A stretch of 64,000 bases of DNA, from the NCBI RefSeq assembly GCF_009650215.1, contig NZ_CP045851.1, forward strand, positions 496,001-560,000, read 5' to 3'. The notes under the pieces are model-generated. The model searched no databases and was not told the DNA's origin. It saw only the letters and a list, made by a program, of their open reading frames with translations. Within the stretch, counting starts at the first letter, position 1; each line of letters opens with the position of its first letter. The translations under genes and the position numbers were made by a program. Below are positions 22,435 through 37,244 of the stretch, piece by piece. Source of the DNA: Actinomarinicola tropica (lineage in GTDB: Bacteria > Actinomycetota > Acidimicrobiia > Acidimicrobiales > SKKL01).

Positions 22435-22631
22435 CGCTTCACCTCGTCACGGCCAGTCCAAGGTCACCAACCGCCCCGCGACGTGCGGTGAATCGCAGCC
22501 GTCGCTTCTACACCTTCTTCTACACCGCGGGCTGGTACCCGGTGGTACAACAGGGGACGGACCGGTACTGCCGATGCGCGAAATCCCAGCTCAGAGCTAC
22601 TGGAAGGCACAGGAAGGTACGGGAGAGGGGC

Positions 22632-22688
22632 CTGACCATCTGGCTCATAACCCGAAGGTCGCGGGTTCAAATCCCGCCCCCGCCACCA
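22632..22688 (+). other. tRNA-Met 3' half: attachment-site remnant
   Basis: The run CTGGCTCATAAC holds an anticodon loop with CAT. A variable loop, a T-arm (GCGGG, TTCAAAT, CCCGC), a 3' acceptor strand CCCCGCC, the discriminator A and an encoded CCA (22686-22688) follow. The matching 5' acceptor strand (GGCGGGG expected near 22612) and a D-arm are absent, so this is not a working tRNA gene. A tRNA 3' end without its 5' half is the classic scar left by tyrosine-integrase elements that recombine into tRNA genes. The intact copy should lie outside the window. Confidence 0.7.
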
Positions 22689-22703
22689 ACGAAAGTCCAG
22701 CTC

Positions 22704-23099: not shown

Positions 23100-23133
23100 T
23101 TGACAGGGATGTCGGAATATCCGACACTAGATG
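23100..23133 (+). promoter_or_regulatory. promoter with palindromic operator for the cargo operon
   Basis: A consensus -35 TTGACA stands at 23100-23105. Directly after it, TGTCGGA-ATA-TCCGACA (23110-23126) is a 7-bp inverted repeat. A weak -10 lies near 23123-23133 (ACACTAGAT). A repressor on the palindrome would occlude the promoter; the XRE protein encoded in the operon is the natural candidate. The palindrome covers the first possible ATG of the first gene, which argues for the downstream GTG start. Confidence 0.6.
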
Positions 23134-23135
23134 TC

Positions 23136-23504
23136 GTGAAGAGTGACATCGCTGCGCCGGGTGCGATCGCACCGCCGAAGCCGGCCGGTGCTGCGGCGCC
23201 GGCCGTCGATCCGCTCGCTGCGGTGCGCAGCCACTCGGTATCTGAGCTCGAGGCCGACCTAGGCAGCCTGCTGCGATCGGCGCAGCCATCCTGCCCCCTT
23301 CAGGAGAAGGCCCCGGACGGGAGCCCACGCGTGCCGAGTCTGATCTCGGTCTGGTTGATCAGCCAGGTGGGCAAGGCGGTCGGCCGACCGAAGCTCGTCA
23401 ACCTGTCCAAGGTGCGGCGCGACGATCTGCGGAGCCTCGGTGGTGTCGCTCGCGTCGTTCACCGGGCGTTGCACCCGGTGCCATCGGAGGCGAAGGCCTC
23501 GTGA
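23136..23504 (+). CDS. putative acyl-carrier-protein-like small protein
   Basis: First gene of the coupled cargo operon, 122 residues from the GTG at 23136; an ATG at 23109 would add nine residues but lies in the putative operator. After a proline/alanine-rich leader (~30 residues) come SVSELEADLGSLL (helix 1), a loop, SLISVWLISQVGKAVG (helix 2) and LRSLGGVARVVHRAL (last helix). That spacing recalls an acyl carrier protein, with the serine of PSLISV where ACPs have DSL. The canonical aspartate is replaced by proline. The phosphopantetheinyl transferase two genes on strengthens the idea. Its GTGA overlaps the next start. Confidence 0.45.
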   Translation: MKSDIAAPGAIAPPKPAGAAAPAVDPLAAVRSHSVSELEADLGSLLRSAQPSCPLQEKAPDGSPRVPSLISVWLISQVGKAVGRPKLVNLSKVRRDDLRSLGGVARVVHRALHPVPSEAKAS

Positions 23505-24376
23505 TCGCGTTGCCTACCGTCGCGTCGCTCAGCGAGGCCTGGGTGCTGGCCCTCGAACGAGTCGTCGGCGAACCCGGCGGTCGGCTCGTGCATCTCGCGG
23601 CCACGGTCACCGACGCGGGCGCCGAGATTCCCGCGATTCGGCATGTGCTCGACGACGCGCTCGAAGCGGCGGGCTCACAGAGCGTCGACACGGTCGCGGA
23701 GACCATCTTCCCCACGTCGCTGTACCCCGACCCCGGCTACGACTGGTTGCCGGGGATCTCCGAGGACAAGGAGGCCGAGCTCAACGCGGCCGCCGACACG
23801 CTCTACGCCAGCTACATCGACATGCTGCCCGTGCTGCTCACCGCCTCAGGGAACAGCCGCGGCACCTACTTCGCCCGCATGGTCACCTGGCCGGGCAAGA
23901 CCGCCGGCGGCGTCAACCAGCTCGCCTCGCGGGTCGTTGCGCTGCGCAGCGAGCACAACGCCGGCCGGCGGCGCAACAACACCATCGACATCGATGTCGC
24001 CGCCGACGCGGTCTCCGACGACGATGCCGAACCGCGTGGTCTGCAGGTCTATGCAGCCACCGACAACCGCCGACGCGGCTTCCCCTGCCTCACCCACGTC
24101 GACCTCACCCTGCACGACGGCCAGCTCAACCTGCTCGCCGTCTACCGCCACCAGTACCTGATCGACAAGGCGTACGGGAACATGGTGGGCCTGTCCCGGC
24201 TGCTCGGCTTCTTGTGTCAACAGACCGGCTACGCACCCGGCGAGCTGGTGGTGCACGCCACCATGGCCGACGCCCAACGCCGCGACTTCCCGGCCGGTGG
24301 GCAGCTCGCCGAGGCCGCCCGTTCCGCCCTCGACAACTCGTCTGCACCTCACGACCCGCACGCGAAATCGACATGA
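23501..24376 (+). CDS. thymidylate-synthase-like protein
   Basis: A 291-residue protein whose C-terminal half resembles the thymidylate synthase fold. RGFPCLTHVDLTLHDGQLN (Cys196) matches the catalytic PCH loop and the following strand; YRHQYLIDKAYGNMVG matches the QRSxDxxLGxPFN segment, with Asn227 at the position that selects dUMP over dCMP; QQTGYAPGELVVHA matches the next helix and strand. The His/Tyr pair usually found just after (GDxHxY) reads MADAQR, so the active site is modified. Related enzymes make dTMP or hydroxymethyl-dUMP. With MazG and the HMUDK-like gene nearby, pyrimidine nucleotide modification is inferred. GTG start overlaps the previous stop. Confidence 0.7.
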   Translation: MIALPTVASLSEAWVLALERVVGEPGGRLVHLAATVTDAGAEIPAIRHVLDDALEAAGSQSVDTVAETIFPTSLYPDPGYDWLPGISEDKEAELNAAADTLYASYIDMLPVLLTASGNSRGTYFARMVTWPGKTAGGVNQLASRVVALRSEHNAGRRRNNTIDIDVAADAVSDDDAEPRGLQVYAATDNRRRGFPCLTHVDLTLHDGQLNLLAVYRHQYLIDKAYGNMVGLSRLLGFLCQQTGYAPGELVVHATMADAQRRDFPAGGQLAEAARSALDNSSAPHDPHAKST

Positions 24377-24846
24377 CCAGTTCGCCGCTGGCCGCCATCC
24401 GGTCCGCCTGGAGCGCCGTCGCCGGCGACGACGGGATGACCGGCGGCGTCGGCATCGATCTCGTCGAGACCAAGACGCTCGAGGAACTGATCGCGGCCGG
24501 CGGCCAGGCGTTCGTCGACTCGGCGTGGTCCACAACTGAACAGCACGACGCCGAGGGAAGCATCGAACGGCTCGCCACCCGGTGGGCAGCCAAGGAAGCG
24601 GTCATGAAGGCACTGCGATGCGGACTCGGCGACCTCGAACCACTCGACATCGAGATCCACACCGGCACCGACGGTGCACCCGACATCGTCCTCCACGGCA
24701 ACGCCCGACACGCAGCATCAACACGCGGACTGCACAGCTGGCACATCTCCATGTGCCACGAACAGGGCTGGGCCGTCGCCATCGCCATCGCCGGGCGCAC
24801 CCTCCCCGAACCCGGACAGAGACCCGAAGGGACCGACCATGACTGA
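24373..24846 (+). CDS. 4'-phosphopantetheinyl transferase (AcpS-type)
   Basis: A 157-residue protein with both AcpS/PPTase signatures: GVGIDLVETKTLEE near residue 25 (Mg-binding Asp) and RWAAKEAVMKALR near residue 72 (Glu and Lys). HISMCHEQGWAVAIAIA near the end matches the last conserved strand. It transfers phosphopantetheine from CoA to the serine of a carrier protein. A dedicated PPTase implies a carrier in the system, and the small first gene of the operon is the only candidate nearby. ATGA overlap with the TS-like gene and overlap with the XRE gene show tight translational coupling. Confidence 0.82.
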   Translation: MTSSPLAAIRSAWSAVAGDDGMTGGVGIDLVETKTLEELIAAGGQAFVDSAWSTTEQHDAEGSIERLATRWAAKEAVMKALRCGLGDLEPLDIEIHTGTDGAPDIVLHGNARHAASTRGLHSWHISMCHEQGWAVAIAIAGRTLPEPGQRPEGTDHD

Positions 24847-25273
24847 CCAGGCCCAAGCCGGCGACAGCCGCGACCCGACCCGAGAACGCGACACCGACGA
24901 CGCCGAGCAGGAACAGCTCGGCGCACGACTCAAGGAGGCACGGGAGTACGTCGGGCTCCTCCAGGAGGACGTCGCCGGCGCGCTCGGCATCCCCCGCACC
25001 AGCGTGCACGCCATCGAGGCAGGCAAGCGCAAGGTCACCGGCCTCGAGCTCCGCCGCCTGGCGCGCCTCTACCGGCGACCAGTCGGATGGCTGCTCGGCG
25101 AGGAGGAGATCGAGCTCAACGACGCCGAACCACTGTTCCGAGCGACCGCCGCGCTGTCGGAGGAGGACAAGGAGCAGGTGCTGCGCTTCGCCGAGTTCCT
25201 CGCTGCCGCCGGTAAGCCCGGCACCGCGGGGCGACAGGCCCGCCGCGGAGCCGCCGCAACGGAAGCGACCTAG
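24839..25273 (+). CDS. XRE-family helix-turn-helix regulator
   Basis: A 144-residue protein. After a charged ~30-residue leader comes a Cro/C1-type HTH: LGARLKEAREYVGLLQEDVAGALGIPRTSVHAIEAGKRKVTG split over helices 1-4, followed by LRRLARLYRRPVGWLLG. XRE genes directly before an ImmA gene are a recurrent pair in mobile elements, where the protease cleaves the repressor on induction. Its probable target is the inverted repeat at 23110-23126. The start overlaps the PPTase stop; the ImmA gene follows after five bases. Confidence 0.88.
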   Translation: MTDQAQAGDSRDPTRERDTDDAEQEQLGARLKEAREYVGLLQEDVAGALGIPRTSVHAIEAGKRKVTGLELRRLARLYRRPVGWLLGEEEIELNDAEPLFRATAALSEEDKEQVLRFAEFLAAAGKPGTAGRQARRGAAATEAT

Positions 25274-25278
25274 ATCCC

Positions 25279-26640
25279 ATGGCAACCGGCGGAGGACGGT
25301 GGAACCGTCGTATCCAGGCCGCAGAGTCGGCCGGGCGGCTCCTCGCGGAGCTCGACGTGAACCCGGCAACCCAGGTCGACGTGTTCGGGATGTGCGAGGA
25401 CCTCGGGCTGTGGCTGGCGTTCCTGCCGATGGACAAGCTCCTCGGGGCCTTCATCCCCGAGGGCGCCGGCGGCGTCCTTGTCACCACCCAGCGGCCCATC
25501 CCGATCCAGCGCTACACCGCCGCCCACGAGATCGGCCACTGGCGCCTCGACCACGGCCACGGGATCGCCCTTGACGGCGAGGAACACGTGCTCGGCGCCA
25601 CCGCGGTGGAGCGCGAGCAACTCGCCCAAATCTTCGCCGGCAGCCTCCTCATGCCACCGCCGCTGGTGTTCGGGGTGCTCGACCGACTCGACGCCACCGG
25701 CACCAGCCTCGATCCCCACCACGCCTATGCCGTGGCACGGGAGGCGGGTGTCAGCTACGAGGCTGCCGTGCGCCAGCTCACCCACCTCGAGGTGATCACC
25801 GCCGACCACGCCGTCGAGCTCCGCCGGCACCGCCCCTTGCAGATCAAGGCCGACCTCGCCCTGGGCCGGCGACCCGTCAACGGCTACGCCGACGTGTGGC
25901 CGGTGAACGAGCTCTGGGACGACATGCTCCTCTCCGTTCGAGTCGAGGACGAGGTCGTGATCTCGCTACCCGAGAACCGCAGCACCGGCTATCGCTGGAT
26001 GTTCCCTAGCGAGCACTCGCCGCCAGAAGTCACCACGCCGCCCCCGAACCTGCGCACGCACCAGATCCAGCCGCCCGACGCCACTCAGATCGCGGCCCTG
26101 CGCGACCAGTTCGCCCTCGCGTCACCACCGGACCGTCCGGCCCGCGCTCCCGGAGTGGTGCTCGACCGGCTCCGTACCGTCGCCGGCCCCGCCCCCCGCC
26201 CGCTCCCATCAGCGGCCGGCGCTGATGTCGTCGGCGACGGGTACGTCCCGGCCCGCACCGGATGGCTGCCCGCCCGACGGGCGCGCCGGCAGCGACTCGC
26301 CCGGCACGCCCCGACCCCACCGGACGAGATCACCAGCGCGCCGGTCGTGGCGGGCACCGGTCGGCGGGTCCTCAGCGTGCGGTTCCCCCGGCCCGGACCG
26401 GCAACGCTGCGGCTGCAATACCGGAGCCCGTACAGCGACACCGAACCCGCCAGCGACTATGTCCTGCACGCCCTGGTCGAACCCCGACACGTCGGGTTCT
26501 CCATCGACCAACTGGCCGAGGACGTCGACGAACCCTGGATCGCACGGGCCCGCCAGCGTCAGCTCGAACGACCATCGGACCCCATCGACGACGTCCCCGA
26601 CGAGGGGGAGACCCCCGGCGACGAGGACAGCTCGGTCTGA
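25279..26640 (+). CDS. ImmA/IrrE-like metalloprotease fused to a chagasin-type (I42) inhibitor domain
   Basis: A 453-residue protein. Residues 1-180 are an ImmA/IrrE domain: AAHEIGHWRLDHG gives the HExxH zinc site at 83-87 and EREQLAQIFAGSLLMP the third ligand. The C-terminal part looks like a chagasin (I42) cysteine-protease inhibitor: ISLPENRSTGYRW (229-240) fits the NPTTGYxW loop, and VVAGTGRRVLSVRF then LRLQYRSPYSD (356-386) fits the second half with the Y-x-RPW loop. About 100 proline-rich residues are inserted between the halves. The next gene is a papain-like protease, the kind of enzyme chagasins inhibit. ImmA calls are firm; the inhibitor domain is motif-based. Confidence 0.8.
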   Translation: MATGGGRWNRRIQAAESAGRLLAELDVNPATQVDVFGMCEDLGLWLAFLPMDKLLGAFIPEGAGGVLVTTQRPIPIQRYTAAHEIGHWRLDHGHGIALDGEEHVLGATAVEREQLAQIFAGSLLMPPPLVFGVLDRLDATGTSLDPHHAYAVAREAGVSYEAAVRQLTHLEVITADHAVELRRHRPLQIKADLALGRRPVNGYADVWPVNELWDDMLLSVRVEDEVVISLPENRSTGYRWMFPSEHSPPEVTTPPPNLRTHQIQPPDATQIAALRDQFALASPPDRPARAPGVVLDRLRTVAGPAPRPLPSAAGADVVGDGYVPARTGWLPARRARRQRLARHAPTPPDEITSAPVVAGTGRRVLSVRFPRPGPATLRLQYRSPYSDTEPASDYVLHALVEPRHVGFSIDQLAEDVDEPWIARARQRQLERPSDPIDDVPDEGETPGDEDSSV

Positions 26641-26659
26641 GCACCGAGGCAAACCCGCG

Positions 26660-27385
26660 ATGACCCCCCATTCGACGCGCCGCGCGACCAGCCTCGCCCT
26701 CGGCCCCATCGACCTGCGCCACCTGCTGCCACCCGGGGTGCGCGACCAGGGCCCGCGACCGCTGTGCCTGCCGTTCACGGTCTCGGCCGTCCACGAAGCC
26801 GCCCGCGCCCAGCTCGCCGCAGGCGCTGAGATGCTGGCCGTCGAGCCGCTCTGGCAGCACTGCGTGCAGGCCGGCGTGGCCGGCCACAGCGGCACCACCC
26901 TGCACGCCGTCACCGACGCCGTCTCCTCGACCGGCCAGCCCACCGACGCCGTCTGGCCGTACAACAACACGCTCGGCGCCGGCACCGAACCGACCCCCGT
27001 CACCGCCGCCACCGCGAACTTCATGACCGTCGACGGGATCGAGGTCCCCCTCGTCCACGACGGCATCGAAGCCCCCATCGAAGCAGCCCTCGCCATCGGA
27101 CTCCCAGTGGTCCTCGTCGTCGAGCTCACCGACCAGTTCGACCAACCCGCCGCCGACGGCGAGATCGATCTCCCACCGCTCACCGCGCCGGTCAGCGACT
27201 ACCACGCAGTGCTCGCTGTCGGCGCCGCCACCAACCCTGCCGGCACGACCCGACGGCTGCTCATCCGCAACTCGTGGGGACCGGGCTGGGGAGCCGGCGG
27301 CTACGGCTGGCTGCCCTACGACTACCTCGTCGCCTTCGCCGTCCAGGCTGGCGTCGCCGACCCCAGCACCCTCGCAACCCGATGA
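26660..27385 (+). CDS. papain-like (C1) cysteine protease
   Basis: A small papain-fold protease of 241 residues. GVRDQGPRPLCLPFT supplies the oxyanion Gln30 and nucleophile Cys36, SDYHAVLAVG the His182, and IRNSWGPGWGAGGYGWLPYDY the Asn204 with the typical C-terminal GxxGY region. All four catalytic positions are present. There is no signal peptide or obvious propeptide, so it should act in the cytoplasm, which is unusual for the family. A cytoplasmic protease would need control, and the chagasin-like domain encoded just upstream is a plausible inhibitor. Coupled by ATGA to the MazG gene. Confidence 0.83.
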   Translation: MTPHSTRRATSLALGPIDLRHLLPPGVRDQGPRPLCLPFTVSAVHEAARAQLAAGAEMLAVEPLWQHCVQAGVAGHSGTTLHAVTDAVSSTGQPTDAVWPYNNTLGAGTEPTPVTAATANFMTVDGIEVPLVHDGIEAPIEAALAIGLPVVLVVELTDQFDQPAADGEIDLPPLTAPVSDYHAVLAVGAATNPAGTTRRLLIRNSWGPGWGAGGYGWLPYDYLVAFAVQAGVADPSTLATR

Positions 27386-28317
27386 CCACGCTCGAACCGC
27401 AATCCGAGGACGAACCCATGGACCTGACCAGCTACCAGGAGCTGTCCGCCCGCACCGACATCCTCACCGCCGATGACCCGCTGATGCCGCTGCTCGGCCT
27501 CGCCGGCGAGGTCGGCCAGCTCATCGCCGAGTACAAGAAACGCCAACGCGACCGGCAGGGCTACCGGGCCTTCGAGGACGAGGTCAGCGAAGAGCTCGGC
27601 GACATCCTCTGGTACGCCGCAGCCTTGGCTCGCCACAACGGCCTCGACCTCGGCGAGATCGCCCGCGCCAACCTGGCCAAGACTCACGACCTGTTCCGCT
27701 CCGGCACCGAGCTCCCGGGCCAGGACCCCTTCGATGCGGGCCTACCCGATGGGCAGCGATTCCCCGACCAGCTCACGGTCACCCTCGTCGAGACGGAGGA
27801 GACCTCCAAGCACGGCGAACGCCTCCAACGGGTGCGGATGTACGCGGGCGACTCGCCCGTCGGCGACCCCCTCGACGACAACAGCGAACACGACGACGAC
27901 TACCGCTACCACGACGTGTTCCACCTCGCGCACATGGCCGTGCTCGGCTGGTCGCCGGTCATGCGACGCCTGCTGGACCGCAAGCGATCGAACCAACCGT
28001 CGGTCGACCGGATCCAAGACGGCGGCCGCGCCGCCGCCATCGAAGAAGGCTTGACCGCGTACGTGTTCACGATGGCCGACGCCCACTCCTACTTCGCCAA
28101 CCTGCAACACGTCCCGCCCAGCATCATCAAGACCTGCGCCAAGATGACCGCCCACCTCGAGGTCTCCGCTCGCTCTCTGGCCGACTGGCACCAGGCCGTG
28201 ATCGCCGGCTACGACGCCTTCCGCAACGTGGTCGCTCACCGGGGCGGCACTCTCACGGCTGACCTGAACCGCCGCACCCTCACCTACGACGCACCGCCCC
28301 GCGGATCGGATCGCTAG
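27382..28317 (+). CDS. MazG-like nucleotide pyrophosphohydrolase with C-terminal extension
   Basis: A 311-residue protein. Residues ~30-105 form a MazG-type all-alpha NTP pyrophosphohydrolase: LLGLAGEVGQLIAEYKK has the first acidic helix and EELGDILWYAAALARHNG the second (ExxD). The remaining ~200 residues form a helical extension with YRYHDVFHLAHMAVLGWSP and AYVFTMADAHSYF, similar to the MazG C-terminal domain reported with DNA base hypermodification genes. MazG enzymes remove pyrophosphate from (d)NTPs, which in phage pathways clears or supplies nucleotides for modified DNA. The stop overlaps the opposite-strand gene by four bases. Confidence 0.8.
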   Translation: MTTLEPQSEDEPMDLTSYQELSARTDILTADDPLMPLLGLAGEVGQLIAEYKKRQRDRQGYRAFEDEVSEELGDILWYAAALARHNGLDLGEIARANLAKTHDLFRSGTELPGQDPFDAGLPDGQRFPDQLTVTLVETEETSKHGERLQRVRMYAGDSPVGDPLDDNSEHDDDYRYHDVFHLAHMAVLGWSPVMRRLLDRKRSNQPSVDRIQDGGRAAAIEEGLTAYVFTMADAHSYFANLQHVPPSIIKTCAKMTAHLEVSARSLADWHQAVIAGYDAFRNVVAHRGGTLTADLNRRTLTYDAPPRGSDR

Positions 28318-29297
28318 ACAGCCTCGAGCGCCGGGGCAATGGTGTTCGTCGGCAGACCCCACTTCGGCGGGAAGAACGGCTCGGGCAGCGCACCGAGGGG
28401 CCGAAAGGTCTGCTTGATGCGGGTGCGGCCGGCCACGCCCGCCACCTCGGGGTGGGCGACCCGGGCGTACTTGCTGATCTCGCAGAACAGGTTCTGCACA
28501 TCGATCAGGTGCAGACGTCGCCCGAACAGCCCCGAGAACGCCAGCCCGAAGTGCTCGAACCAGCGGTCCTGGTCCTCGGTGAGCGCCCGGATCACCTCGG
28601 CCGCCCGGCGCAGGTTCATGCCCGGGAACACCTTCGACAACCCGTCGAGCGCACCGGGACCGGCGACGACGAACTCGTCCTCGTCGTGATCCACCACGGG
28701 GCTGTAGCAGAGGTCGATGGCCAGCTGATACGCGAGGAAGTCACCTAGTCCCGGCACGCAGTGCAACACCCCGAAGAGGTCCCGGAGATCGGCGGTCGAC
28801 TCGATCCGCTCGGTGAGGCCGTCTTCGACGAGGTCGACGGCGAGCTGGAGGTGGCCGGCGTGCTTGGGGGCCGGCCAGCCGGGTCGCGGCGGGATGATGT
28901 AGGCGCTGGAGTAGATGCGGCGCCCCTCGGACCGGGCGCGCGCCAACACTCGGTCGGCGGCGACGGGATCGAACGATCCCAGCGACGGTGGCCCCACCTC
29001 ACCGGCGAGCAGCTCCCAGGTGTCGATCTTGTTGAACAGCCGGAACAACACGACCCGGAAGACGACCTCGGCGACATCGTCGTCGGCGTCGCCGGCGTAG
29101 ATCACGTCGCGGATGAGGTACTGGCTGACGCGGTCCGAGGCACGGAACGCGTTCGTGAACCGGTACTCGCCGAGGACCGGATCGTCGGTCCATGGTGCGG
29201 GCAGGCCGGCCAAGCGCCGTTGGTACATCGCGTGCCGCTCGGCCGCGAACCGCCAGAACGACTCGAACACCGGACTTGGGTCGGGAAGGCGGCTCAT
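28314..29297 (-). CDS. 5-hmdU kinase helical-domain / thymine-pyrophosphorylase-like protein
   Basis: A 327-residue protein of the family often named 'nucleotide kinase domain' or alpha-glutamyl/putrescinyl thymine pyrophosphorylase. Diagnostic segments are FWRFAAERHAMYQRR, PWTDDPVLGEYRFTNAFR and DRVSQYLIRDVIY at the N terminus, GLGDFLAYQLAIDLCYS in the middle, and DVQNLFCEISKYAR at the end. These proteins are associated with thymidine hypermodification in phages. The ATG at 29297 (MSRLPDPSP) is chosen over an in-frame upstream start. It converges on the MazG gene (stops share CTAG) but is co-directional with the integrase, 75 bases downstream of it. Confidence 0.78.
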   Translation of the reverse strand: MSRLPDPSPVFESFWRFAAERHAMYQRRLAGLPAPWTDDPVLGEYRFTNAFRASDRVSQYLIRDVIYAGDADDDVAEVVFRVVLFRLFNKIDTWELLAGEVGPPSLGSFDPVAADRVLARARSEGRRIYSSAYIIPPRPGWPAPKHAGHLQLAVDLVEDGLTERIESTADLRDLFGVLHCVPGLGDFLAYQLAIDLCYSPVVDHDEDEFVVAGPGALDGLSKVFPGMNLRRAAEVIRALTEDQDRWFEHFGLAFSGLFGRRLHLIDVQNLFCEISKYARVAHPEVAGVAGRTRIKQTFRPLGALPEPFFPPKWGLPTNTIAPALEAV

Positions 29298-29372: not shown

Positions 29373-30566
29373 TCACGCGTCACCTCCCTGGCCAACGGGT
29401 CCCTCGTCGGCATCCGAGCTGTCCGACTCTGCCTCGTCGTCGCGGCCGAACATGAGGTCGGCGATCTGGTCGGCGGCGTCGTCCTCGGCGGCGGGGATGG
29501 CGTGCATGTAGACGTCCATGGTGAACGAGGTCGTGGCGTGACCGAGCCGGTCCGAGATGATCTTGACCGGCACCCCGGCGCTGAGACCCAGCGTGGCGTG
29601 GGTGTGGCGAAGATCGTGCAGGCGGATCTTGGGCAGCTCGAGGCGCTTCACGGTGCGGTCGAAGGTCTGGGAGAAGTAGTCGGGATGGATCGGGCTGCCG
29701 TCGGGGCGGGCGAACACGAGGTCCTGGTCCCGGTAGCCGTCGCCGAGCAGGTGCCGCTCGCGTCGCTGCGCGGCCCGGTGGGCGCGCAGCACCTCGAGGG
29801 TGCCGACGTCGAGGGAGATCTTGCGTTCCCCGCGGCGGGTCTTGGGTTGGCCGACGGTCACCTGGTAGTTCACCGACAGGATCGTCTGGCGGACGTGCAG
29901 CCGGCGGGCCGGGAAGTTGATGTCGCTCCAGCGCACGCCGAGCACCTCCCCGCGGCGCATCCCGGTGGTGGCCGCCAGCAGGTAGGCGGGGGCCAGGCGG
30001 TGCCCGGCGATGCCATCGAAGAACACCCGCAGCTGGGCCGGGGTCCAGGTCTTCATCTCCTCGCCGTTGGCCCGGGCCAGCTTGGGCGGGTCGGCCGCGT
30101 CGGCGGCGTTGCGGGGCACGAGGTTCTTGCGCACGGCGTCGCGCAGCGCCTTGTGGAGCAGGGCGTGGATGTTGCGGACCGTCTTGGCCGACAGGCCCGA
30201 GGCGACGAGATCGGCGTAGAAGCGGTCGAGGCGGTCGGGGGAGAGCTGCTGGATCTGGATGTGGCCGAGCTCGGGTAGGACGTGGCAGTTGATCGCGGTC
30301 TGGTAGCTGGCGTAGGTGCTGGGCCGCAGCGACAGCTGGCGGGCGGGCAGCCACCGTTCGGTGAGGAAGTCGCCGACGGTGACTTTGGTCGGCTCGGCGA
30401 ACACGCCGCCTCGGAGGGCGGCCATGACATCGGTGAGGAAGTCCTGGGCTTCCTTCTTGGTGCGGAACCCGCCCTTGGAGTGGTGCTTGCGGCCCTCGGC
30501 GGTGTCGGTCCGCCACCGGACCGTCCATGTGTCGCCTCGCCGGTGAATGGATCCTCGTTGGCTCAT
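29373..30566 (-). CDS. tyrosine recombinase (site-specific integrase)
   Basis: A 397-residue phage-type integrase. It has an N-terminal arm-binding domain (RGSIHRRGDTWTVRWR), the SAM-like core-binding domain (~60-160), and the catalytic domain with Arg in TTGMRRGEVLGVRW, HxxR in LHDLRHTHATLGL, and the second His plus nucleophile Tyr in LGHATTSFTMDVYMHA. All catalytic residues are present, so it should be active. It overlaps the upstream excisionase gene by four bases. It is the likely agent of insertion at the tRNA-Met site 6.7 kb away, with cargo sitting between. Confidence 0.93.
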   Translation of the reverse strand: MSQRGSIHRRGDTWTVRWRTDTAEGRKHHSKGGFRTKKEAQDFLTDVMAALRGGVFAEPTKVTVGDFLTERWLPARQLSLRPSTYASYQTAINCHVLPELGHIQIQQLSPDRLDRFYADLVASGLSAKTVRNIHALLHKALRDAVRKNLVPRNAADAADPPKLARANGEEMKTWTPAQLRVFFDGIAGHRLAPAYLLAATTGMRRGEVLGVRWSDINFPARRLHVRQTILSVNYQVTVGQPKTRRGERKISLDVGTLEVLRAHRAAQRRERHLLGDGYRDQDLVFARPDGSPIHPDYFSQTFDRTVKRLELPKIRLHDLRHTHATLGLSAGVPVKIISDRLGHATTSFTMDVYMHAIPAAEDDAADQIADLMFGRDDEAESDSSDADEGPVGQGGDA

Positions 30567-30967
30567 GATCGGCCCCCGGTGCGGTTCGGCCGCGACGCGG
30601 CCTGCCTGCTGTCGTGGGCCAACTCGGGCCGAGCCACCAGCCGAAGCGTCGGGCTCTCGTCGGTGCCGTCGGCGGTGGGGTCATCACCGTAGAGGTCGTC
30701 GAGTCCAGAATCTTGCGCGCCGGGGTCGAGGAGTCGCCGCAGCGCGGCGGTCGGGACACGGATGAGTCGACCGACGCGGATGACCGGCACCGGAAAAGTC
30801 CCTTCCTTGATGGCCCGGTAGCCGGTGGTGCGGTCGATGCCGAGCTCGGCGAAGGCCTCATCGGCGGTCACGCAGGCCCGGGCCGACGGGTCCGGGATCA
30901 CGAGCCCGGCTCCGGGCGGGTCGGCGGCGGGCCGGCGGTCGGTCGCGCTGCTTGCATGCCGACTCAC
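30563..30967 (-). CDS. excisionase-like MerR-type HTH protein
   Basis: A 134-residue protein with a winged-helix excisionase core: TADEAFAELGIDRTTGYRAIKEGTFPVPVIRVGRLIRVPTAALRRLL divided over the HTH and wing. The remaining C terminus is acidic and probably disordered. Excisionases bend attachment-site DNA and set the direction of integrase action. The gene overlaps the integrase start, the standard xis-int order of actinobacterial ICEs. It may bind the GCGAAC repeats near the att site. Confidence 0.82.
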   Translation of the reverse strand: MSRHASSATDRRPAADPPGAGLVIPDPSARACVTADEAFAELGIDRTTGYRAIKEGTFPVPVIRVGRLIRVPTAALRRLLDPGAQDSGLDDLYGDDPTADGTDESPTLRLVARPELAHDSRQAASRPNRTGGRS

Positions 30968-32028: not shown

Positions 32029-32337
32029 GTGAACCGACCTGAACCTGTGGCGACGTGCGTGGCGCCGGGCACCCAGCCCGTTCTGTTCCATCTGCCCTCC
32101 GGGCGTGTCCCCACCTACGTGGTGATCGACCGGCGCGGCCAGGAGCAGGTGCGCACGTCGTCGCTCGGGGTGGCGGTCACGGCCGCGCGTCGGGTGCTGG
32201 CCGAACAGGGCGAGGTGTGGATCCGTGCGTCGGACGCCACCTGTGCCCACATCGACCCGCACCGGGTCGCCACGGACACGCCGTCGTGCCCGTGGATCCA
32301 GACCATTGCTGCGACCTTGGAGGTAGCACCGTCATGA
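32029..32337 (+). CDS. small hypothetical protein upstream of parB-like gene
   Basis: A 102-residue protein read from GTG 32029 (VNRPEPVATC); a TTG one codon upstream is an alternative, and GAGAGG 12 bases upstream could be the ribosome binding site. It contains PVLFHLPSGRVPTYVVIDRRG and SLGVAVTAARRVLAEQGEVW, suggestive of a small alpha/beta fold. No family was recognised. Its stop overlaps the ParB-like start (ATGA), so the two are translated together and probably share a role in maintenance of the element. Confidence 0.6.
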   Translation: MNRPEPVATCVAPGTQPVLFHLPSGRVPTYVVIDRRGQEQVRTSSLGVAVTAARRVLAEQGEVWIRASDATCAHIDPHRVATDTPSCPWIQTIAATLEVAPS

Positions 32338-33782
32338 CCACCACCGACCCCACCCACAACATCGACACGGGCGACGACATGATGTCGGGCGAACCGGAGC
32401 TGTGTTGGCTCAACCTCGCCGACCTCGCCGCCCACCCCGACAACCCGCGCACCTCGCTGGGCGACCTGACCGAACTGGTCCGCTCGATCCGCGCCCACGG
32501 CATCCTCGAACCGCTCGTCGTGCTCCCCGCAGACACCGACGGCGTCTACCGGATCATCGCCGGGCACCGCCGCCACGCGGCGGGCCTCAAGGCCGGGGTC
32601 AGCGACGTGCCCGCCGTGGTCCGACCCATGAGCCCGGCCGAGGTGATCGAGGCCATGCTCAGCGAGAACGTCAACCGCTCCGACCTCACCGTCGCCGAGG
32701 AGGTCCGGGCCATCGAGCGGCTCATGTCCCTCGACGACGGCCTCACCCCGGCCAAGCTGTGCAAGCGCATCGGCCGCTCCCAAGCCTGGGTGCGGTCCCG
32801 CATGGCCGTCACCATCCTCCCGGCCCGCTGGCGCACCGCGCTCGACACCGGCGACCTCACCCTCGCCGCCGGCGAAGCCGCCGCCACCGTCGCCGACCTC
32901 GGCCCCGACCACCTCGACGCCGTCTGCGACCAACTCGCACAGAGCCGCTGGGGCGACCCCGTCCGAGTGGTGGCCAACTACCGCGACGACCTGCGCCGCG
33001 CCGAGGCCTACCAGCGTGCCCTCGACAAGGCCCAGGCGAGCGGCGATCGGGTCTTCACTAGCGAGGACCCCGCCCCCGACAAGGCCAAGCGCCTCGGCGA
33101 GCTCTTCGACCCCGACGGCTGCACCGCCCATCGCGGCGAGCCGTGCCACGCCGTCGTCGTGCGCCGCACCGGCTGGGGCGACGGCTACGAACGCGCCGAG
33201 GTGTGCACCGACCCCCGCCGCCACGCCCCCAACCGGGTCGGCACCGCCACCGGCAGCGACCTGGCCACCGACCGCATCCCCACCCGGCACCGGTCCGGCA
33301 GCGGCGACGACTCCCACGCCAAGCGCGCCGGTCGCCTCGCCCGTCTCGCCCACGCCGCTGACACCTTCGCCAAGGCCAGAGGCGGGTTCGGTCAGACCGA
33401 CCTCACCCGGGTCGCGCTGCGAGGACTGATCCTCGAGGCCGGACGCGACGCCGTCGTGTTCGCGGCCACGATGCTCGGCCACGACGAACCCCGCGACGTG
33501 ACCGCCACCGCGCTGCTCGACGGCGTCGACAGTCCGGCCGGGCTTGCCAGGGTGGCGGGGGCTGTCGCCCTCGGTCAGGCGGAGTCCCGCATGTACTGGT
33601 CCCCCGCCAGCGAGCAGTGCCGCGACTACCTCGGGCTGCTCACCGGATCGGGCTGGACGCCCGACGACTGGACCGCCGCTGCCCTCGCCGCTGCACCCGC
33701 CGACCACGGACCTGACGACGAGGACGGTCCCCTCGGCGACGGCGACGACGCGGTCGACGAGGACGCCGACCTCGCCGGCTGA
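32334..33782 (+). CDS. ParB/RepB-like DNA-binding nuclease-fold protein
   Basis: A 482-residue protein with an N-terminal ParB domain: LNLADLAAHPDNPR, SIRAHGILEPLVVLP and YRIIAGHRRHAAGLKAG, where GHRRHAAG replaces the usual GERRxRA CTP-binding box. A following HTH region includes ENVNRSDLTVAEEVRAIERL and KLCKRIGRSQAWVRSRM. The C-terminal 250 residues are less conserved, contain several cysteines (CTAHRGEPCHA, VCTDPRRH) and end acidic. ParB-like proteins on ICEs serve partition or gene regulation; no ParA is next to it, which favours regulation or an accessory role. Confidence 0.83.
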   Translation: MTTTDPTHNIDTGDDMMSGEPELCWLNLADLAAHPDNPRTSLGDLTELVRSIRAHGILEPLVVLPADTDGVYRIIAGHRRHAAGLKAGVSDVPAVVRPMSPAEVIEAMLSENVNRSDLTVAEEVRAIERLMSLDDGLTPAKLCKRIGRSQAWVRSRMAVTILPARWRTALDTGDLTLAAGEAAATVADLGPDHLDAVCDQLAQSRWGDPVRVVANYRDDLRRAEAYQRALDKAQASGDRVFTSEDPAPDKAKRLGELFDPDGCTAHRGEPCHAVVVRRTGWGDGYERAEVCTDPRRHAPNRVGTATGSDLATDRIPTRHRSGSGDDSHAKRAGRLARLAHAADTFAKARGGFGQTDLTRVALRGLILEAGRDAVVFAATMLGHDEPRDVTATALLDGVDSPAGLARVAGAVALGQAESRMYWSPASEQCRDYLGLLTGSGWTPDDWTAAALAAAPADHGPDDEDGPLGDGDDAVDEDADLAG

Positions 33783-33793
33783 CTCTCGTAGTC

Positions 33794-33831
33794 GACGGCC
33801 CGGGCATCCCCGACGGGACGGCCGGGCCGTC
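33794..33831 (+). terminator. hairpin terminator after parB-like gene
   Basis: GACGGCCCGG and CCGGGCCGTC form a perfect 10-bp stem with an 18-base loop, starting 12 bases after the stop. No U-run follows, as is usual in this GC-rich background. Confidence 0.55.
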
Positions 33832-33928
33832 CGCGTTCTGCCTTGAGAACGACTTTCAGCGGTCGGGAGTGATCTCGGGACGAACTCCGGGACCGGGTTG
33901 TGCTGGGGCGGACCATTCGGCGCGTCTG

Positions 33929-34095
33929 GTGCCGTGGCCGCCTTGCGGGCGGGTGCCGTGACCCGCCTGCGGCGGGGGTGCCGTGTGGGCCGTCACCGCC
34001 GCTCGTGTCAAGCCCCTCGCGAGCTCGGGGCCAAGCCCTTCGGGTTGACACGGCGTCGCCGCCGGCCCGGCGCCCGTAGGGCGAAGCCCGGCCAC
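33929..34095 (+). repeat. structured intergenic repeat module, copy 2
   Basis: Same layout as copy 1: GTGCCGTG units, an outer stem GGGCCG (33987-33992) with CGGCCC (34063-34068), the inner stem GTGTCAA (34005) with TTGACAC (34045-34051), and a 3' hairpin CGCCC-GTA-GGGCG (34071-34083) followed by AAGCCCGGCC. The next start codon is ~108 bases after this hairpin. Confidence 0.72.
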
Positions 34096-34190
34096 CCGGT
34101 CGGGCACGACATCCAGCCCTCGGGGGCGAGGTCGGTCGGGGAAGCCGCCGGACCCCTGGGGCTGGGTCACCCGACCCCCAAGGAGCCCCG

Positions 34191-34646
34191 ATGACCACCA
34201 CCCCCACCACCGAGCACACCGCCACCGAGCCCACGGACGACCGCGACGGGCGCGAGCCGCTGCGCAGCGCGGCCGACACCGTGACCGTGATCGCCTGGCA
34301 CGACCCCATCGTCGACACCGCAACCGGCGCCATCGCAACCGACAGCGACGACGCCCTCGTCTGGTACACGCCCTCGATCGGCACCATCGGCATGGCCATG
34401 GCCCACCGCTTCGCCCGCCACGCCGCCGACGGCCCTTCCACCTGGACCATCGAGGACATCGCCCGCACCTTCGGCCTCGGCCCCTCCGCCCCCCGGGTGC
34501 TGCGCAGCCTCGAGCGCCTGGAGCGCTTCGGGATCATCCGCCGCCACGGCACCACCATCGCCGTGCGCCTCTGGCTGGCACCGCTCACCTACCGGCAGCG
34601 CTGCGGGCTCCCGGCCTACCTGGCCGCCGCCTACGACGCCCGCTGA
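34191..34646 (+). CDS. winged-helix-like hypothetical ICE protein
   Basis: A 151-residue protein. After an acidic disordered leader (~35 residues) it has VWYTPSIGTIGMAMAHRFARHA and then TWTIEDIARTFGLGPSAPRVLRSLERLERFGIIRRHGTT, separated here as a probable winged-helix DNA-binding domain (helices plus a basic wing). This type of protein is often found beside WhiB in actinobacterial ICEs; a replication-initiation or regulatory role is possible. It is preceded by structured repeat copy 2, and AGGAG stands just before the ATG. The WhiB gene follows after six bases. Confidence 0.65.
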   Translation: MTTTPTTEHTATEPTDDRDGREPLRSAADTVTVIAWHDPIVDTATGAIATDSDDALVWYTPSIGTIGMAMAHRFARHAADGPSTWTIEDIARTFGLGPSAPRVLRSLERLERFGIIRRHGTTIAVRLWLAPLTYRQRCGLPAYLAAAYDAR

Positions 34647-34652
34647 TCCGCC

Positions 34653-35084
34653 ATGACCGCCGGCCCGGCGGCCTGGCGCGCCCAGGCCGCCTGCCGCGGC
34701 ACCGACCCGGCCCTGTTCTATGACCCCCACCCGGCCGCGGTCGCCGCGGCCAAGACCGTATGCGCCAGCTGCCCGGTCCGGGACGCCTGCGCCGCCCACG
34801 CCATCGCGGCCGGGGAGGAGTACGGCGTCTGGGGCGGACTCGCCGCTGACGAACGCCCCGCCCCTCAACCTCAACGCGAGCCGGCACCGGGACCGGCGCC
34901 GCGCATCAGCGACGACGAGCTCTACGACCTGCTCATCGATGCCGACCCCGACCGGGCCGCCCTCGATCAGCTCCTCGACCACCGCTGGCTCCCCACCGCT
35001 ACCGCCTACAAGGCCCTCGAACGTGCCGTGCGCCTCGGCGTCGTCGAGCGTCGCGGCCGCGCCCTGTTCCCCACCCGCCACTGA
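34653..35084 (+). CDS. WhiB-family iron-sulfur transcription factor
   Basis: A 143-residue WhiB-like protein. Four cysteines at 14, 37, 40 and 46 (ACRGTDP, CASCPVRDAC) form the [4Fe-4S] site; GVWGG at 58-62 is the invariant turn. The usual basic C-terminal arm is replaced by a longer tail with a second helical region (DDELYDLLIDAD, ALERAVRLGVVERRG) that looks like a winged helix. WhiB proteins are restricted to Actinobacteria and their phages and respond to redox or NO, so the element may sense host stress. Confidence 0.9.
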   Translation: MTAGPAAWRAQAACRGTDPALFYDPHPAAVAAAKTVCASCPVRDACAAHAIAAGEEYGVWGGLAADERPAPQPQREPAPGPAPRISDDELYDLLIDADPDRAALDQLLDHRWLPTATAYKALERAVRLGVVERRGRALFPTRH

Positions 35085-35115
35085 CCCGACCAGCTCGCCT
35101 TGTGCGGGGCGGGGT

Positions 35116-35272
35116 GTGCCGTGGCACCGGCCCGGTGGGCCGGTGGTGCCGTGTCGCCCGCCGCCGCACCGCTGTCAAGCCCCTCCGCAAGCTCCGGGGC
35201 CGAGCCCTTCGGGTTGACAGCGGCGCTCAGGGCGGCGGGCCAGAGCGCCCCGTAGGGGCGAAGCCCGCCCAA
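35116..35272 (+). repeat. structured intergenic repeat module, copy 3
   Basis: Outer stem GCCCGCCGCC (35156-35165) with GGCGGCGGGC (35231-35240), ten pairs. The inner stem is CTGTCAA (35172) with TTGACAG (35214-35220): the first pair is C-G where copies 1 and 2 have G-C, a compensatory change. 3' hairpin CGCCCC-GTA-GGGGCG at 35246-35260. The ArdC-like gene begins 33 bases later. Confidence 0.75.
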
Positions 35273-35292
35273 CCAGACCGAAGGGAACCGCC

Positions 35293-36225
35293 ATGCACGC
35301 CGAGGACCTGTTCGCCCAGATCACCGACCAACTCATCGCCGACATCGAGACCGGCGCCGCCGGCCAGTGGCGCATGCCCTGGCACACCCTCGCCGATGCC
35401 GGCACCCCCACCAGCGTCGACGGCCGCCCCTACCGCGGCGCCAACGCCCTGTGGCTCGCCATGGTCGCCACCGCCCGCAACTGGACCTCGGGCACCTGGG
35501 CCACCTACCGGGCCTGGCAGCGCCACGGCGCCCAGGTCCGCCGCGGCGAGAAGGCCACCCAGGTCATCCTCTGGAAGCCCGTCACCCCCAAGCCCACCGA
35601 CACCAACGACGACGACACCGCCAGCGACCGGACACCCCGGCCCCAGCTGCTCGCCCGCGCCTACGCCGTGTTCGCCGCCGAGCAATGCGACGGCGCGGAG
35701 GAGATCATCGCCCGCCGCACCCACGACCTCGCCCGGCGCGACACCCCCGAGCGGATCGCCGACGCGGAGGACTACTTCGCGGCCATCGCCGCCACCGTCA
35801 TCGAGGGCGGCAACCGGGCCTGCTACCAGCCCGCCACCGACACCATCCACCTGCCCGCCCTCGAAGCCTTCGATACCGCCGCCCACTACTACGGCACCCG
35901 CGCCCACGAGACCGTCCACTGGACCGGCCACCACAGCCGGCTCGCCCGCGACCTCACCGGCCGCTTCGGCACCGACAGCTACGCCGCCGAGGAGCTCGTC
36001 GCCGAGCTCGGCGCCGCCATGTGGTGCGCCCAGGCCGGCCTGTCCGCCGTCACCCGCACCGACCACGCCGCCTACCTCGCCGGCTGGCTGCGCATCCTCC
36101 GCACCGACGCCCGAGCCCTGATCACCGTAGCCAGCCGGGCCCAAGCCGCCGTCGACCACCTCAACACCCTCGCCGGTCACCACACCAGCGACACCAACGC
36201 CGACGACGACGAGGCCGCCGCCTGA
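35293..36225 (+). CDS. ArdC-like antirestriction / zincin protein
   Basis: A 310-residue protein with the ArdC layout. The N-terminal ssDNA-binding domain shows GQWRMPWHTL, GRPYRGANALWLAM and YRAWQRHGAQVRRGEKAT, and the C-terminal zincin domain has RAHETVHWTGH (HExxH at 205-209) followed by ELVAELGAAMWC, which supplies the third ligand. ArdC proteins protect incoming plasmid ssDNA and inhibit restriction enzymes, fitting an element that enters cells as single-stranded DNA. It directly follows structured repeat copy 3. Confidence 0.87.
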   Translation: MHAEDLFAQITDQLIADIETGAAGQWRMPWHTLADAGTPTSVDGRPYRGANALWLAMVATARNWTSGTWATYRAWQRHGAQVRRGEKATQVILWKPVTPKPTDTNDDDTASDRTPRPQLLARAYAVFAAEQCDGAEEIIARRTHDLARRDTPERIADAEDYFAAIAATVIEGGNRACYQPATDTIHLPALEAFDTAAHYYGTRAHETVHWTGHHSRLARDLTGRFGTDSYAAEELVAELGAAMWCAQAGLSAVTRTDHAAYLAGWLRILRTDARALITVASRAQAAVDHLNTLAGHHTSDTNADDDEAAA

Positions 36226-36312
36226 ACCGCCAGACCCGGAAACGCCAGCGTGCGCCGCACGCAACGCCACCGGCCACCGGGCGGCCTCCGCCATCCCGGT
36301 CGGCCGGCGGGT

Positions 36313-36345
36313 GTGCCGTGGCCGCCCTGCGGGCGGGTGCCGTCG
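36313..36345 (+). repeat. partial structured repeat module, copy 4 (head only)
   Basis: Only the head unit is kept: GTGCCGTGGCCGCC then TGCGGGCGGGTGCCGT. It matches the beginning of copies 1 and 2 nearly base for base; the stem-loop body is missing. It lies 64 bases before the gene at 36409. Confidence 0.6.
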
Positions 36346-36408
36346 GCCAGACAACCCGAGACAACCCGCTTCGTACCGTCGCGAGCCATCCGACCAGGAG
36401 GCTCACCC

Positions 36409-36942
36409 ATGCGCAGACGACGCCACCATCCCGACGCCACGCCCCCAACCGCCCGCCAACCCGACGGACCCGGCGAGCCGGTCTACGACTGGAACCGGTA
36501 CGGACGGCACCGCCTCCGCGCCCCCGACGGCGCCATCATCGAGCTCCCCATCCCCGTCGACGCCGCCCACACCGTGTGGGTCGCCACCACCTGGCCCGAC
36601 CCCACCGTCACCGGAGGATGGGCTCGCCAACTGTGGGCGGCCGACCCCACCGCCGGTCGAGGCTGGCAGCTCCCGCACCAGCTCGCCGCCGGCGACATCG
36701 TCGAGTTCGGCGCCGACGGCCCCACCGGTCCCCGCCGCTGGTACGGGATCATGGACAGCTACGAGGTCGACCGGTGGGCCACCCTCCAAGGCCCCTACCC
36801 CCATCCCGCCGCCGCCCACGACGCCGCCCAGCAGCTCCTCGCCGTAGAGCGCTACGTCCCGCCCCTCGAACCCGACCCAAGTCCCAACCCCTGCCGACGC
36901 ACGCCGCGGCAGCGCCGACCCCGCCACCACCGGCCCCGCTGA
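36409..36942 (+). CDS. hypothetical ICE protein, 177 residues
   Basis: Basic at both ends (MRRRRHHPD; RRTPRQRRPRHHRPR) with a central region of about 120 residues: VYDWNRYGRHRLRAPDGA, ELPIPVDAAHTVWV and LAAGDIVEFGADGPTGPRRWYG. No family was recognised. The sequence could be a small beta-rich domain. AGGAGG 11 bases before the ATG supports the start. Its place between ArdC-like and a HTH gene of the element suggests an accessory function in mobility or replication. Confidence 0.6.
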   Translation: MRRRRHHPDATPPTARQPDGPGEPVYDWNRYGRHRLRAPDGAIIELPIPVDAAHTVWVATTWPDPTVTGGWARQLWAADPTAGRGWQLPHQLAAGDIVEFGADGPTGPRRWYGIMDSYEVDRWATLQGPYPHPAAAHDAAQQLLAVERYVPPLEPDPSPNPCRRTPRQRRPRHHRPR

Positions 36943-36973
36943 CCCGTAAGACGTCACACAGCCCGCAACTGCC

Positions 36974-37159
36974 GTGACCGCCATGGCCACGGCCACTGAC
37001 CAGCCCCTCATGCCCGCCGCCGAGGCCGCCGAACGGCTCGAGCTCACCCTCGCCCAGCTCTGCCGGCTCATCGACCGAGGCGAGCTCCACGCCTACCGCG
37101 ACGACCGCTCCTACCTCCACGTCCCCGTCGCCGAGGTCGAAGCCCTCGCCACCGGGTAG
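36974..37159 (+). CDS. small excisionase-like HTH protein
   Basis: A 61-residue MerR/excisionase-type DNA-binding protein: AAEAAERLELTLAQLCRLIDRGELHAYRD gives the HTH and turn, SYLHVPVAEVEAL the wing and last helix. Similar proteins are encoded as a second Xis or as a regulator of ICE transfer genes. The gene is 31 bases after the previous one on the same strand. An ATG three codons in (MATATDQ) is an equally good start. Confidence 0.72.
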   Translation: MTAMATATDQPLMPAAEAAERLELTLAQLCRLIDRGELHAYRDDRSYLHVPVAEVEALATG

Positions 37160-37244
37160 CCCCCCCAGCCTGGACGCCCCAGGCCGCCGCAACCCCAGCC
37201 GGCTTGGCCCGCCCCCCGCAGACCGTGGATCCGGACCCCGCCGT

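What the first reader, a model, noticed from the sequence alone, without database searches (positions are those of the whole stretch)
23100..29297. Candidate nucleotide/DNA modification or conflict system as cargo of an integrative element
Seen: seven plus-strand genes with overlapping or near-abutting ends (ACP-like, TS-like, AcpS-type PPTase, XRE, ImmA-inhibitor fusion, papain-like protease, MazG) converge on a gene of the 5-hmdU kinase helical/thymine-pyrophosphorylase type, between an att-like tRNA fragment and the integrase. Known: TS homologues make hydroxymethyl-dUMP in phages, MazG enzymes prune dNTP pools, and the HMUDK/aGPT-PPlase family acts in thymidine hypermodification. Inferred: the set makes or polices a modified thymidine, perhaps with a group carried on a phosphopantetheine arm, and is guarded by a protease switch. 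I know of no described system with this exact gene set.
Basis: partly seen in the sequence, partly recalled or inferred. Interest (0 to 1): 0.92.

Follow-up and report, generated by a model that had tools for sequence, protein, structure and literature searches.

The report
Inducible carrier-protein/thymidylate-synthase-like conflict operon
A mobile DNA element in this bacterium carries a tightly packed operon, found again in dozens of unrelated bacteria, that joins a carrier protein, a thymidylate-synthase-like enzyme and a base-recognising protein known from phages under a protease-controlled switch; it looks like an unexplained way of making or attacking unusual DNA building blocks to fight viruses.

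Summary
Seven coupled plus-strand genes plus a convergent HMUDK_hel gene (23136-29297) lie between a tRNA-Met-like fragment and an integrase on an integrative element. The set is not chance: a TS-like profile search of ~85,000 species gave 80 loci in many phyla, nearly all with ACP, XRE, ImmA-type protease, TS-like, MazG and HMUDK_hel in tight synteny. The TS-like protein has the thymidylate-synthase fold with invariant catalytic Cys and Asn but lacks folate-contact residues; the only invariant ACP residue is the phosphopantetheine Ser. New here: a conserved promoter operator (62/79 loci versus 3/239 control windows); a dedicated PPTase where the ACP D-S-L motif diverged; exact replacement of HMUDK_hel by a uracil-DNA glycosylase (71 versus 6 loci, never both); MazG swapped for canonical TS, thymidylate kinase or dCTP deaminase; defence-rich neighbourhoods. 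Best reading: an inducible anti-phage-type nucleotide system in which the ACP arm replaces folate on a TS-fold enzyme and a base-acting protein works on the product. The defence context is supported; the chemistry is inferred. A 2026 study validated TS and 5-hmdU-kinase domains in E. coli defence, so this is a new variant of a known kind.

The parts
22622..22691 (+). Degenerate tRNA-Met 3' fragment, att-like left edge of the integrative element
   Evidence: Rfam tRNA 29.9 bits, barely over gathering; 53-bp match, 94%, to the intact tRNA-Met at C1:404326; ARAGORN finds no whole tRNA here
23100..23128 (+). Promoter: -35 TTGACA 23100-23105, 17-nt spacer, -10-like GACACT 23123-23128; leaderless start follows at 23136
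   Evidence: Sequence; aligned in L016-L021 and L023
23110..23126 (.). Operator palindrome TGTCGGAATATCCGACA between -35 and -10, predicted XRE site
   Evidence: Same or related palindrome in 62 of 79 loci near XRE, 0.3 expected by shuffling, 3 of 239 control windows; W, L016, L020, L021, L023, L024 have it upstream of ACP
23136..23504 (+). Acyl carrier protein-like; phosphopantetheine Ser codon 23337-23339 (P-S-L)
   Evidence: Ser is the only invariant column of 47 aligned members; PF00550 in 26/47; PDB ACP profile hit 1.6e-10
23501..24376 (+). TS-fold enzyme; catalytic Cys196 codon 24086-24088, Asn227 codon 24179-24181
   Evidence: TIGR03283 1.6e-11; Cys and Asn 68/68; AlphaFold model pLDDT 89 matches MilA and thymidylate synthases
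24373..24846 (+). AcpS-type phosphopantetheinyl transferase
   Evidence: PF01648 1.7e-14; present in 13/14 loci with a diverged ACP motif, 6/55 with D-S-L
24839..25273 (+). XRE repressor, CapH-like
   Evidence: PF13560 2.1e-11; PADLOC capH 9e-14
25279..26640 (+). ImmA/IrrE (M78) protease with C-terminal I42 chagasin-type inhibitor domain, CapP-like
   Evidence: PF06114 7.9e-7, PF09394 3.3e-8; capP 1.1e-15; HExxH intact, I42 motif only in loci that also have the C1 gene
26660..27385 (+). Papain-like C1 cysteine protease, accessory (18 loci)
   Evidence: PF00112 1.7e-6; Gln/Cys/His/Asn motifs visible in the sequence
27382..28317 (+). MazG pyrophosphohydrolase with MazG_C domain
   Evidence: PF18722 1.3e-67, PF03819 2.7e-5; 68 of 86 loci
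28314..29297 (-). HMUDK_hel protein, standalone, convergent and overlapping MazG by 4 nt
   Evidence: PF18723 1.9e-97; model pLDDT 92 matches phage 5-hmdU DNA kinase helical domains
29373..30566 (-). Tyrosine integrase of the element
   Evidence: PF00589 2e-20
30563..30967 (-). Excisionase-like HTH protein
   Evidence: TIGR01764 3.6e-4
32334..40187 (+). Element backbone: ParB 32334-33782, WhiB 34653-35084, ArdC/polyvalent peptidase 35293-36225, TrwC relaxase-helicase 37725-40187
   Evidence: Pfam

Best explanation
It is an inducible, mobile, defence-type nucleotide operon. In the resting cell the XRE protein sits on the operator inside the operon promoter. A signal of infection or DNA damage activates the ImmA-type metalloprotease, which cuts XRE and opens the operon. 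The PPTase (its own or the host's) puts a phosphopantetheine arm on the ACP. The TS-fold enzyme attacks C6 of a uracil nucleotide through its conserved Cys and lets C5 react with the ACP arm, which takes the place that folate has in ordinary thymidylate synthase, as nucleophile or as donor of a carried group, giving a C5-substituted deoxyuridine. MazG/MazG_C, or in other genomes a canonical TS with a thymidylate-type kinase and dCTP deaminase, sets the precursor pool. The HMUDK_hel protein, or a uracil-DNA glycosylase in other genomes, then acts on that uracil-type base in DNA, so that DNA copied during infection is spoiled. Shown by sequence: gene set, folds, conserved active-site residues, operator, swaps of parts, defence-gene neighbourhood. 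Inferred: XRE cleavage, ACP-for-folate chemistry, action on DNA and the anti-phage outcome.
For: Conserved set in many phyla and on conjugative plasmids. Distances between partners correlate, so they travel as a unit. Invariant TS Cys and Asn and ACP Ser. In the profile alignment to solved TS the folate Asp (QRSAD), the GVP loop and the ribose HLY motif are replaced, whereas the second, canonical TS of some loci keeps all three. PPTase/ACP-motif covariation, p = 9e-9 before correcting for relatedness. HMUDK_hel and UDG replace each other exactly. dUMP-directed extras: dCTP deaminase, TS, thymidylate kinase, the kinase fused to HMUDK_hel in six loci. Operator. Neighbours match 72 PADLOC families (SoFic, type I REase, DrmD and others) against 2 for control genes. 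HMUDK_hel+MazG also sits beside TIR/Nmad2 and a CBASS phospholipase. TS and 5-hmdU-kinase domains validated in E. coli defence (PMC13092281).
Against: No measured product or phage phenotype for this operon. No conserved enzyme loads the ACP. The loss of folate contacts rests on a profile alignment, not on a structure with ligand. HMUDK_hel shows no significant profile similarity to HhH glycosylases and only a weak fold hit, so glycosylase-like action is inferred from the swap alone. In phages HMUDK_hel goes with protective modification, not destruction. The PADLOC control came from only four genomes.
Confidence: 0.4

Rival explanations
1. Protective hypermodification: the operon puts a bulky group on thymidine of the element or host DNA (as ViI or PhiW-14 phages do on their own), and HMUDK_hel presents the base for the transfer; any defence effect is self/non-self marking.
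For: HMUDK_hel relatives lie in phage hypermodification clusters with TS, ADDT and the P-loop HMUDK kinase, or with TS and glycosyltransferases; its model matches PhiW-14 and SP10 proteins; some loci fuse a thymidylate-type kinase to HMUDK_hel.
Against: A repressed, protease-inducible promoter suits a weapon better than constant self-marking; no restriction partner is part of the core; a glycosylase can take the HMUDK_hel slot; ADDT and the P-loop HMUDK are absent from the window; the TS-like family is not found in 50,697 phage records.
Confidence: 0.2
2. Policing of modified phage DNA: the operon detects or destroys unusual uracil bases made by phages (hmdU, U). HMUDK_hel/UDG excises or binds them, MazG removes their triphosphates, and the TS-like/ACP pair senses or traps the monophosphate.
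For: HMUDK_hel/UDG exchange; MazG and dCTP deaminase are pool-limiting enzymes; HMUDK_hel relatives occur in 480 phage records, so phage bases are a plausible target.
Against: Canonical TS plus thymidylate kinase in some loci looks like synthesis, not surveillance; it does not explain why a carrier arm is needed.
Confidence: 0.2
3. The product is a free nucleotide or nucleoside, a signal or antimetabolite, not a DNA base; HMUDK_hel/UDG acts on nucleotides as MilB-type hydrolases do after MilA.
For: Closest solved fold of the TS-like protein is MilA, the CMP hydroxymethylase of mildiomycin biosynthesis; HMUDK_hel+MazG sits beside TIR/Nmad2 genes and a CBASS effector.
Against: UDG-superfamily and phage HMUDK proteins are known to act on DNA (established knowledge); no conserved effector or sensor gene for a signal is in the core.
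Confidence: 0.15
4. Ordinary regulatory and metabolic cargo of an integrative element: XRE/ImmA control element excision, and the rest is nucleotide housekeeping without a joint function.
For: XRE/ImmA pairs regulate ICEs (own knowledge: ICEBs1; an ImmR-like regulator of TnSmu1, PMC10233336, abstract); the operon lies next to an integrase.
Against: The set recurs in synteny across phyla, on plasmids and in places with unrelated neighbours; XRE/ImmA sit inside the operon and the operator is in its own promoter.
Confidence: 0.05

Closest known systems
DefensePredictor systems of E. coli and beyond (Science 2026, PMC13092281)
   Same: Validated defence units contain a thymidylate synthase and a 5-hmdU DNA kinase (figure legend also names dNMP kinase and NMAD); predicted ones contain MazG, MazG-C, aGPT-Pplase, NMAD, UDG, HTH
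   Different: No acyl carrier protein or ImmA is mentioned in the main text; supplements could not be read, so sequence relationship is untested; DNA of two relatives had no match in E. coli genomes
Phage thymidine hypermodification clusters (ViI, M6, PhiW-14, SP10, Sonora)
   Same: TS-family enzyme plus HMUDK_hel
   Different: Phage Sonora has the P-loop HMUDK (PF18748) and ADDT (PF18724), no ACP, no XRE/ImmA next to them; the TS-like family here is absent from phage records
CapH/CapP switch of CBASS and other defence loci
   Same: Adjacent XRE repressor and ImmA-type protease with intact HExxH, operator in the operon promoter
   Different: No CD-NTase or Cap effector; the protease has a long C-terminal extension, here an I42 inhibitor domain next to a C1 protease gene
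CMP hydroxymethylase MilA and thymidylate synthase ThyA
   Same: Fold, catalytic Cys and base-reading Asn
   Different: Folate Asp, GVP loop and ribose HLY motif not kept; constant ACP partner in the operon
RosmerTA (XRE + ImmA toxin-antitoxin)
   Same: XRE+ImmA pair with weak RmrA hits
   Different: Here the pair is embedded in a biosynthetic operon

Membership tests
Thymidylate synthase superfamily | TS fold | tested here: met
   Foldseek MilA 9.5e-10, probability 1.00, then dozens of TS entries
Thymidylate synthase superfamily | Catalytic Cys and base-reading Asn | tested here: met
   C196 68/68, N227 68/68, aligned to TS PPC and VPFN
Thymidylate synthase (dTMP-forming, folate-dependent) | Folate Asp, GVP loop, ribose HLY motif, Pfam PF00303 | tested here: not met
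   Profile alignment to solved TS lacks these; no Pfam hit; the second TS of relatives keeps them
HMUDK_hel (PF18723) | Family profile | tested here: met
   1.9e-97, 326 bits against a cut-off of 25
5-hmdU DNA kinase | P-loop kinase domain beside or fused to HMUDK_hel | tested here: not met
   None in the window; a thymidylate-type kinase is fused in six relatives
Acyl carrier protein | Ppant Ser in an ACP-like helical protein | tested here: met
   Ser invariant 47/47; PF00550 26/47; PDB 1.6e-10; the window copy alone has no Pfam hit
Acyl carrier protein | Is phosphopantetheinylated and carries a group | not testable with these tools
   Only indirect: PPTase co-occurs with diverged ACP motifs
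CapH/CapP switch | XRE next to M78 protease with HExxH | tested here: met
   capH 9e-14, capP 1.1e-15; HExxH in all intact loci
CapH/CapP switch | ssDNA-activated cleavage of XRE | not testable with these tools
   No biochemistry possible
CBASS | CD-NTase and Cap effector in the operon | tested here: not met
   None among the eight genes
Phage thymidine hypermodification pathway | ADDT and P-loop HMUDK | tested here: not met
   Absent from the window, present in phage Sonora
DefensePredictor TS/5hmdUk defence system | Homology of components and architecture | not tested
   Its sequences are in supplements that could not be opened
Integrative mobilisable/conjugative element | Integrase, att in tRNA, relaxase | tested here: met
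   PF00589, tRNA-Met fragment, TrwC relaxase 1.5e-67; the far att is not inside the window

The most novel reading that the evidence does not exclude
A dedicated acyl carrier protein has replaced folate as co-substrate of a thymidylate-synthase-fold enzyme: its phosphopantetheine arm, or a group on it, is joined to C5 of a uracil nucleotide, making a protein-carried or carrier-donated modified deoxyuridine that serves as an anti-phage weapon and is removed or processed in DNA by HMUDK_hel or a uracil-DNA glycosylase.
Probability: 0.3. Interest if true: 0.93.

Novelty: new variant of a known kind. Interest (0 to 1): 0.78.

Why it matters
If the reading holds, carrier-protein chemistry (fatty-acid and polyketide style) is coupled to nucleotide chemistry in a way not known to me, and used against viruses. 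It also gives a bacterial, defence-side role to HMUDK_hel, a family known chiefly from phage DNA hypermodification, and the exchange with a uracil-DNA glycosylase makes the question of what HMUDK_hel does on its own directly testable. The conserved Cys, Asn, Ser and operator give clean knock-out points.

Tried and rejected
Rejected: the operon as a chance neighbourhood; the operon as a phage pathway (TS-like absent from phage records; close relatives absent from viral contigs); HMUDK_hel as a proven HhH glycosylase (profile comparison not significant; solved-structure fold search only 3knt at probability 0.35). Led nowhere: sequence search of solved structures with the single TS-like protein and with HMUDK_hel; E. 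coli DNA searches for relatives. Two older comparative-genomic papers on base-modification and nucleotide-centric systems are not held, so I cannot say whether they list this set. The home-made gene caller is crude in low-GC loci, so neighbour counts are approximate.
Full report
What is there. Seven plus-strand genes overlap or nearly abut, from an ACP-like gene to MazG, and a convergent minus-strand gene of the HMUDK_hel family overlaps the end of MazG by four bases. Family searches gave AcpS-type PPTase, XRE, M78 protease with an I42 inhibitor domain, papain-like C1 protease, MazG with MazG_C and HMUDK_hel; the second gene hits only the methanogen thymidylate synthase profile, at 1.6e-11. 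XRE and protease match the CapH/CapP pair of PADLOC.

The carrier element. The genes lie between a 53-base tRNA-Met-like fragment (an intact tRNA-Met is elsewhere in the genome) and a tyrosine integrase. ParB, WhiB, ArdC and a TrwC relaxase follow. A relative in an Acidimicrobiia bin (L021) shares 23094-34448 at about 92-94% identity, and the likeness stops just upstream of the promoter.

Recurrence. In a spread of phylum genomes the TS-like gene is in 4 of 297 and HMUDK_hel in 6 of 397; the four are a subset of the six and the genes are neighbours. A scan of about 85,000 species with a four-sequence profile returned 80 loci from Actinomycetota, Cyanobacteriota, Proteobacteria, Planctomycetota, Verrucomicrobiota, Chloroflexota, Armatimonadota and Bacillus. 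Profile searches of the window, five further loci and these 80 found ACP in 73, XRE in 80, the protease in 80, HMUDK_hel in 78, MazG in 68, the PPTase in 21 and C1 in 18. TS is the bait, the others are not; most of the missing ACPs are a divergent subfamily or lie in cut-off contigs. On conjugative plasmids NCBI names the same row acyl carrier protein, HTH, ImmA, thymidylate synthase, nucleotide kinase domain, pyrophosphohydrolase, holo-ACP synthase. Protein distances of partners correlate with those of TS in all five comparisons.

The TS-like enzyme. Its model (pLDDT 89) matches CMP hydroxymethylase MilA and then thymidylate synthases. Cys196 and Asn227 are invariant in 68 sequences and align with the catalytic Cys and the base-reading Asn of solved TS. 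In the same alignment the folate-binding Asp, the GVP loop and the ribose-binding HLY motif are replaced (roles of these residues from established knowledge of ThyA). The second TS present in some loci keeps these (sequence; PF00303 3.8e-21).

The carrier. In 47 divergent ACPs the only invariant column is the phosphopantetheine Ser. Where the residue before it is not Asp (window: P-S-L) a PPTase is in the operon in 13 of 14 loci, against 6 of 55 otherwise (Fisher p = 9e-9, but relatedness inflates this).

The switch. A 15-17 base palindrome (TGTCGGAnnnTCCGACA or GTAAGAnnnTCTTAC) lies upstream of the operon: in the window at 23110-23126, between TTGACA and the -10. It is found within 800 bases of XRE in 62 of 79 loci, against 0.3 by shuffling and 3 of 239 control windows; in the window's own group it lies further up, before the ACP gene. 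HExxH is kept in all intact proteases, and the I42 motif occurs only in loci that also have the C1 protease (8 of 8).

Swaps. In 77 intact loci HMUDK_hel is present in 71 and a UDG-superfamily protein in the other 6, never both, never neither. The UDG (PF03167 4e-5, a hair below its curated cut-off) keeps an Asp, an Asn and a His at motif positions in six aligned sequences, and NCBI names a plasmid copy uracil-DNA glycosylase. MazG is missing mostly where a canonical TS or a dCTP deaminase is present (61 MazG only, 8 TS/deaminase only, four with both, four with neither); a thymidylate-type kinase accompanies the canonical TS, and in six loci the kinase is fused to HMUDK_hel, as in the larger phage SP10 5-hmdU DNA kinase.

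Context. 109 neighbours of the operons match 72 PADLOC families at 1e-10 (SoFic, type I REase, DrmD, MTases) against 2 families for 109 control genes from four genomes. HMUDK_hel with MazG also occurs beside TIR and Nmad2 genes and a CBASS phospholipase. HMUDK_hel relatives are in 480 phage records, with TS and glycosyltransferases or with ADDT and the P-loop HMUDK; the TS-like family is in none.

Literature. DefensePredictor (PMC13092281) validated E. coli defence units holding a thymidylate synthase and a 5-hydroxymethyluracil kinase, and predicted MazG, MazG-C, aGPT-Pplase, NMAD and UDG defence domains. No held paper found by the searches joins these with an acyl carrier protein.

Conclusion. 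That this is a conserved, switch-controlled, mobile operon of uracil-nucleotide chemistry in defence surroundings I hold at about 0.8. That the ACP arm replaces folate and that HMUDK_hel/UDG acts on the product in DNA is inference, together about 0.3-0.4.

Noticed in passing
window 31805-31879, 33977-34051, 35145-35219: Three dispersed copies of a roughly 75-170 bp non-coding repeat inside the element backbone, also present in the relative L021; no Rfam match.
   Followed up: partly
G000 C1:404326, 518646 (window 22646), 639708: One intact tRNA-Met and two 3' fragments, all on the + strand about 115-120 kb apart, as if two elements were integrated in tandem at one tRNA.
   Followed up: partly
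L014, L015, L107, L108, L084, L025, L081: A second type of locus joins HMUDK_hel (and often MazG) with a ThsB-like TIR gene and Nmad2, once next to a CBASS phospholipase: possibly a separate defence system.
   Followed up: partly
L007 11616-12578, L043 15034-15993, L062 12555-13520, L084 12608-13615: A TylF-like methyltransferase gene next to HMUDK_hel in four actinobacterial loci.
   Followed up: no
L026 12164-12469 and 27 further actinobacterial loci: A small conserved protein of about 100 aa, no Pfam hit in the one tested, directly beside HMUDK_hel.
   Followed up: no
window 31029-31739: Minus-strand gene beside the excisionase with a nucleotidyltransferase-like motif (FGSLSRPDTTRVGDVDL); no Pfam match at 0.001.
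   Followed up: no
L105 3681-4515: In a Rhizobium plasmid the TS-like gene is split in two reading frames, so that copy looks broken while its neighbours are intact.
   Followed up: no
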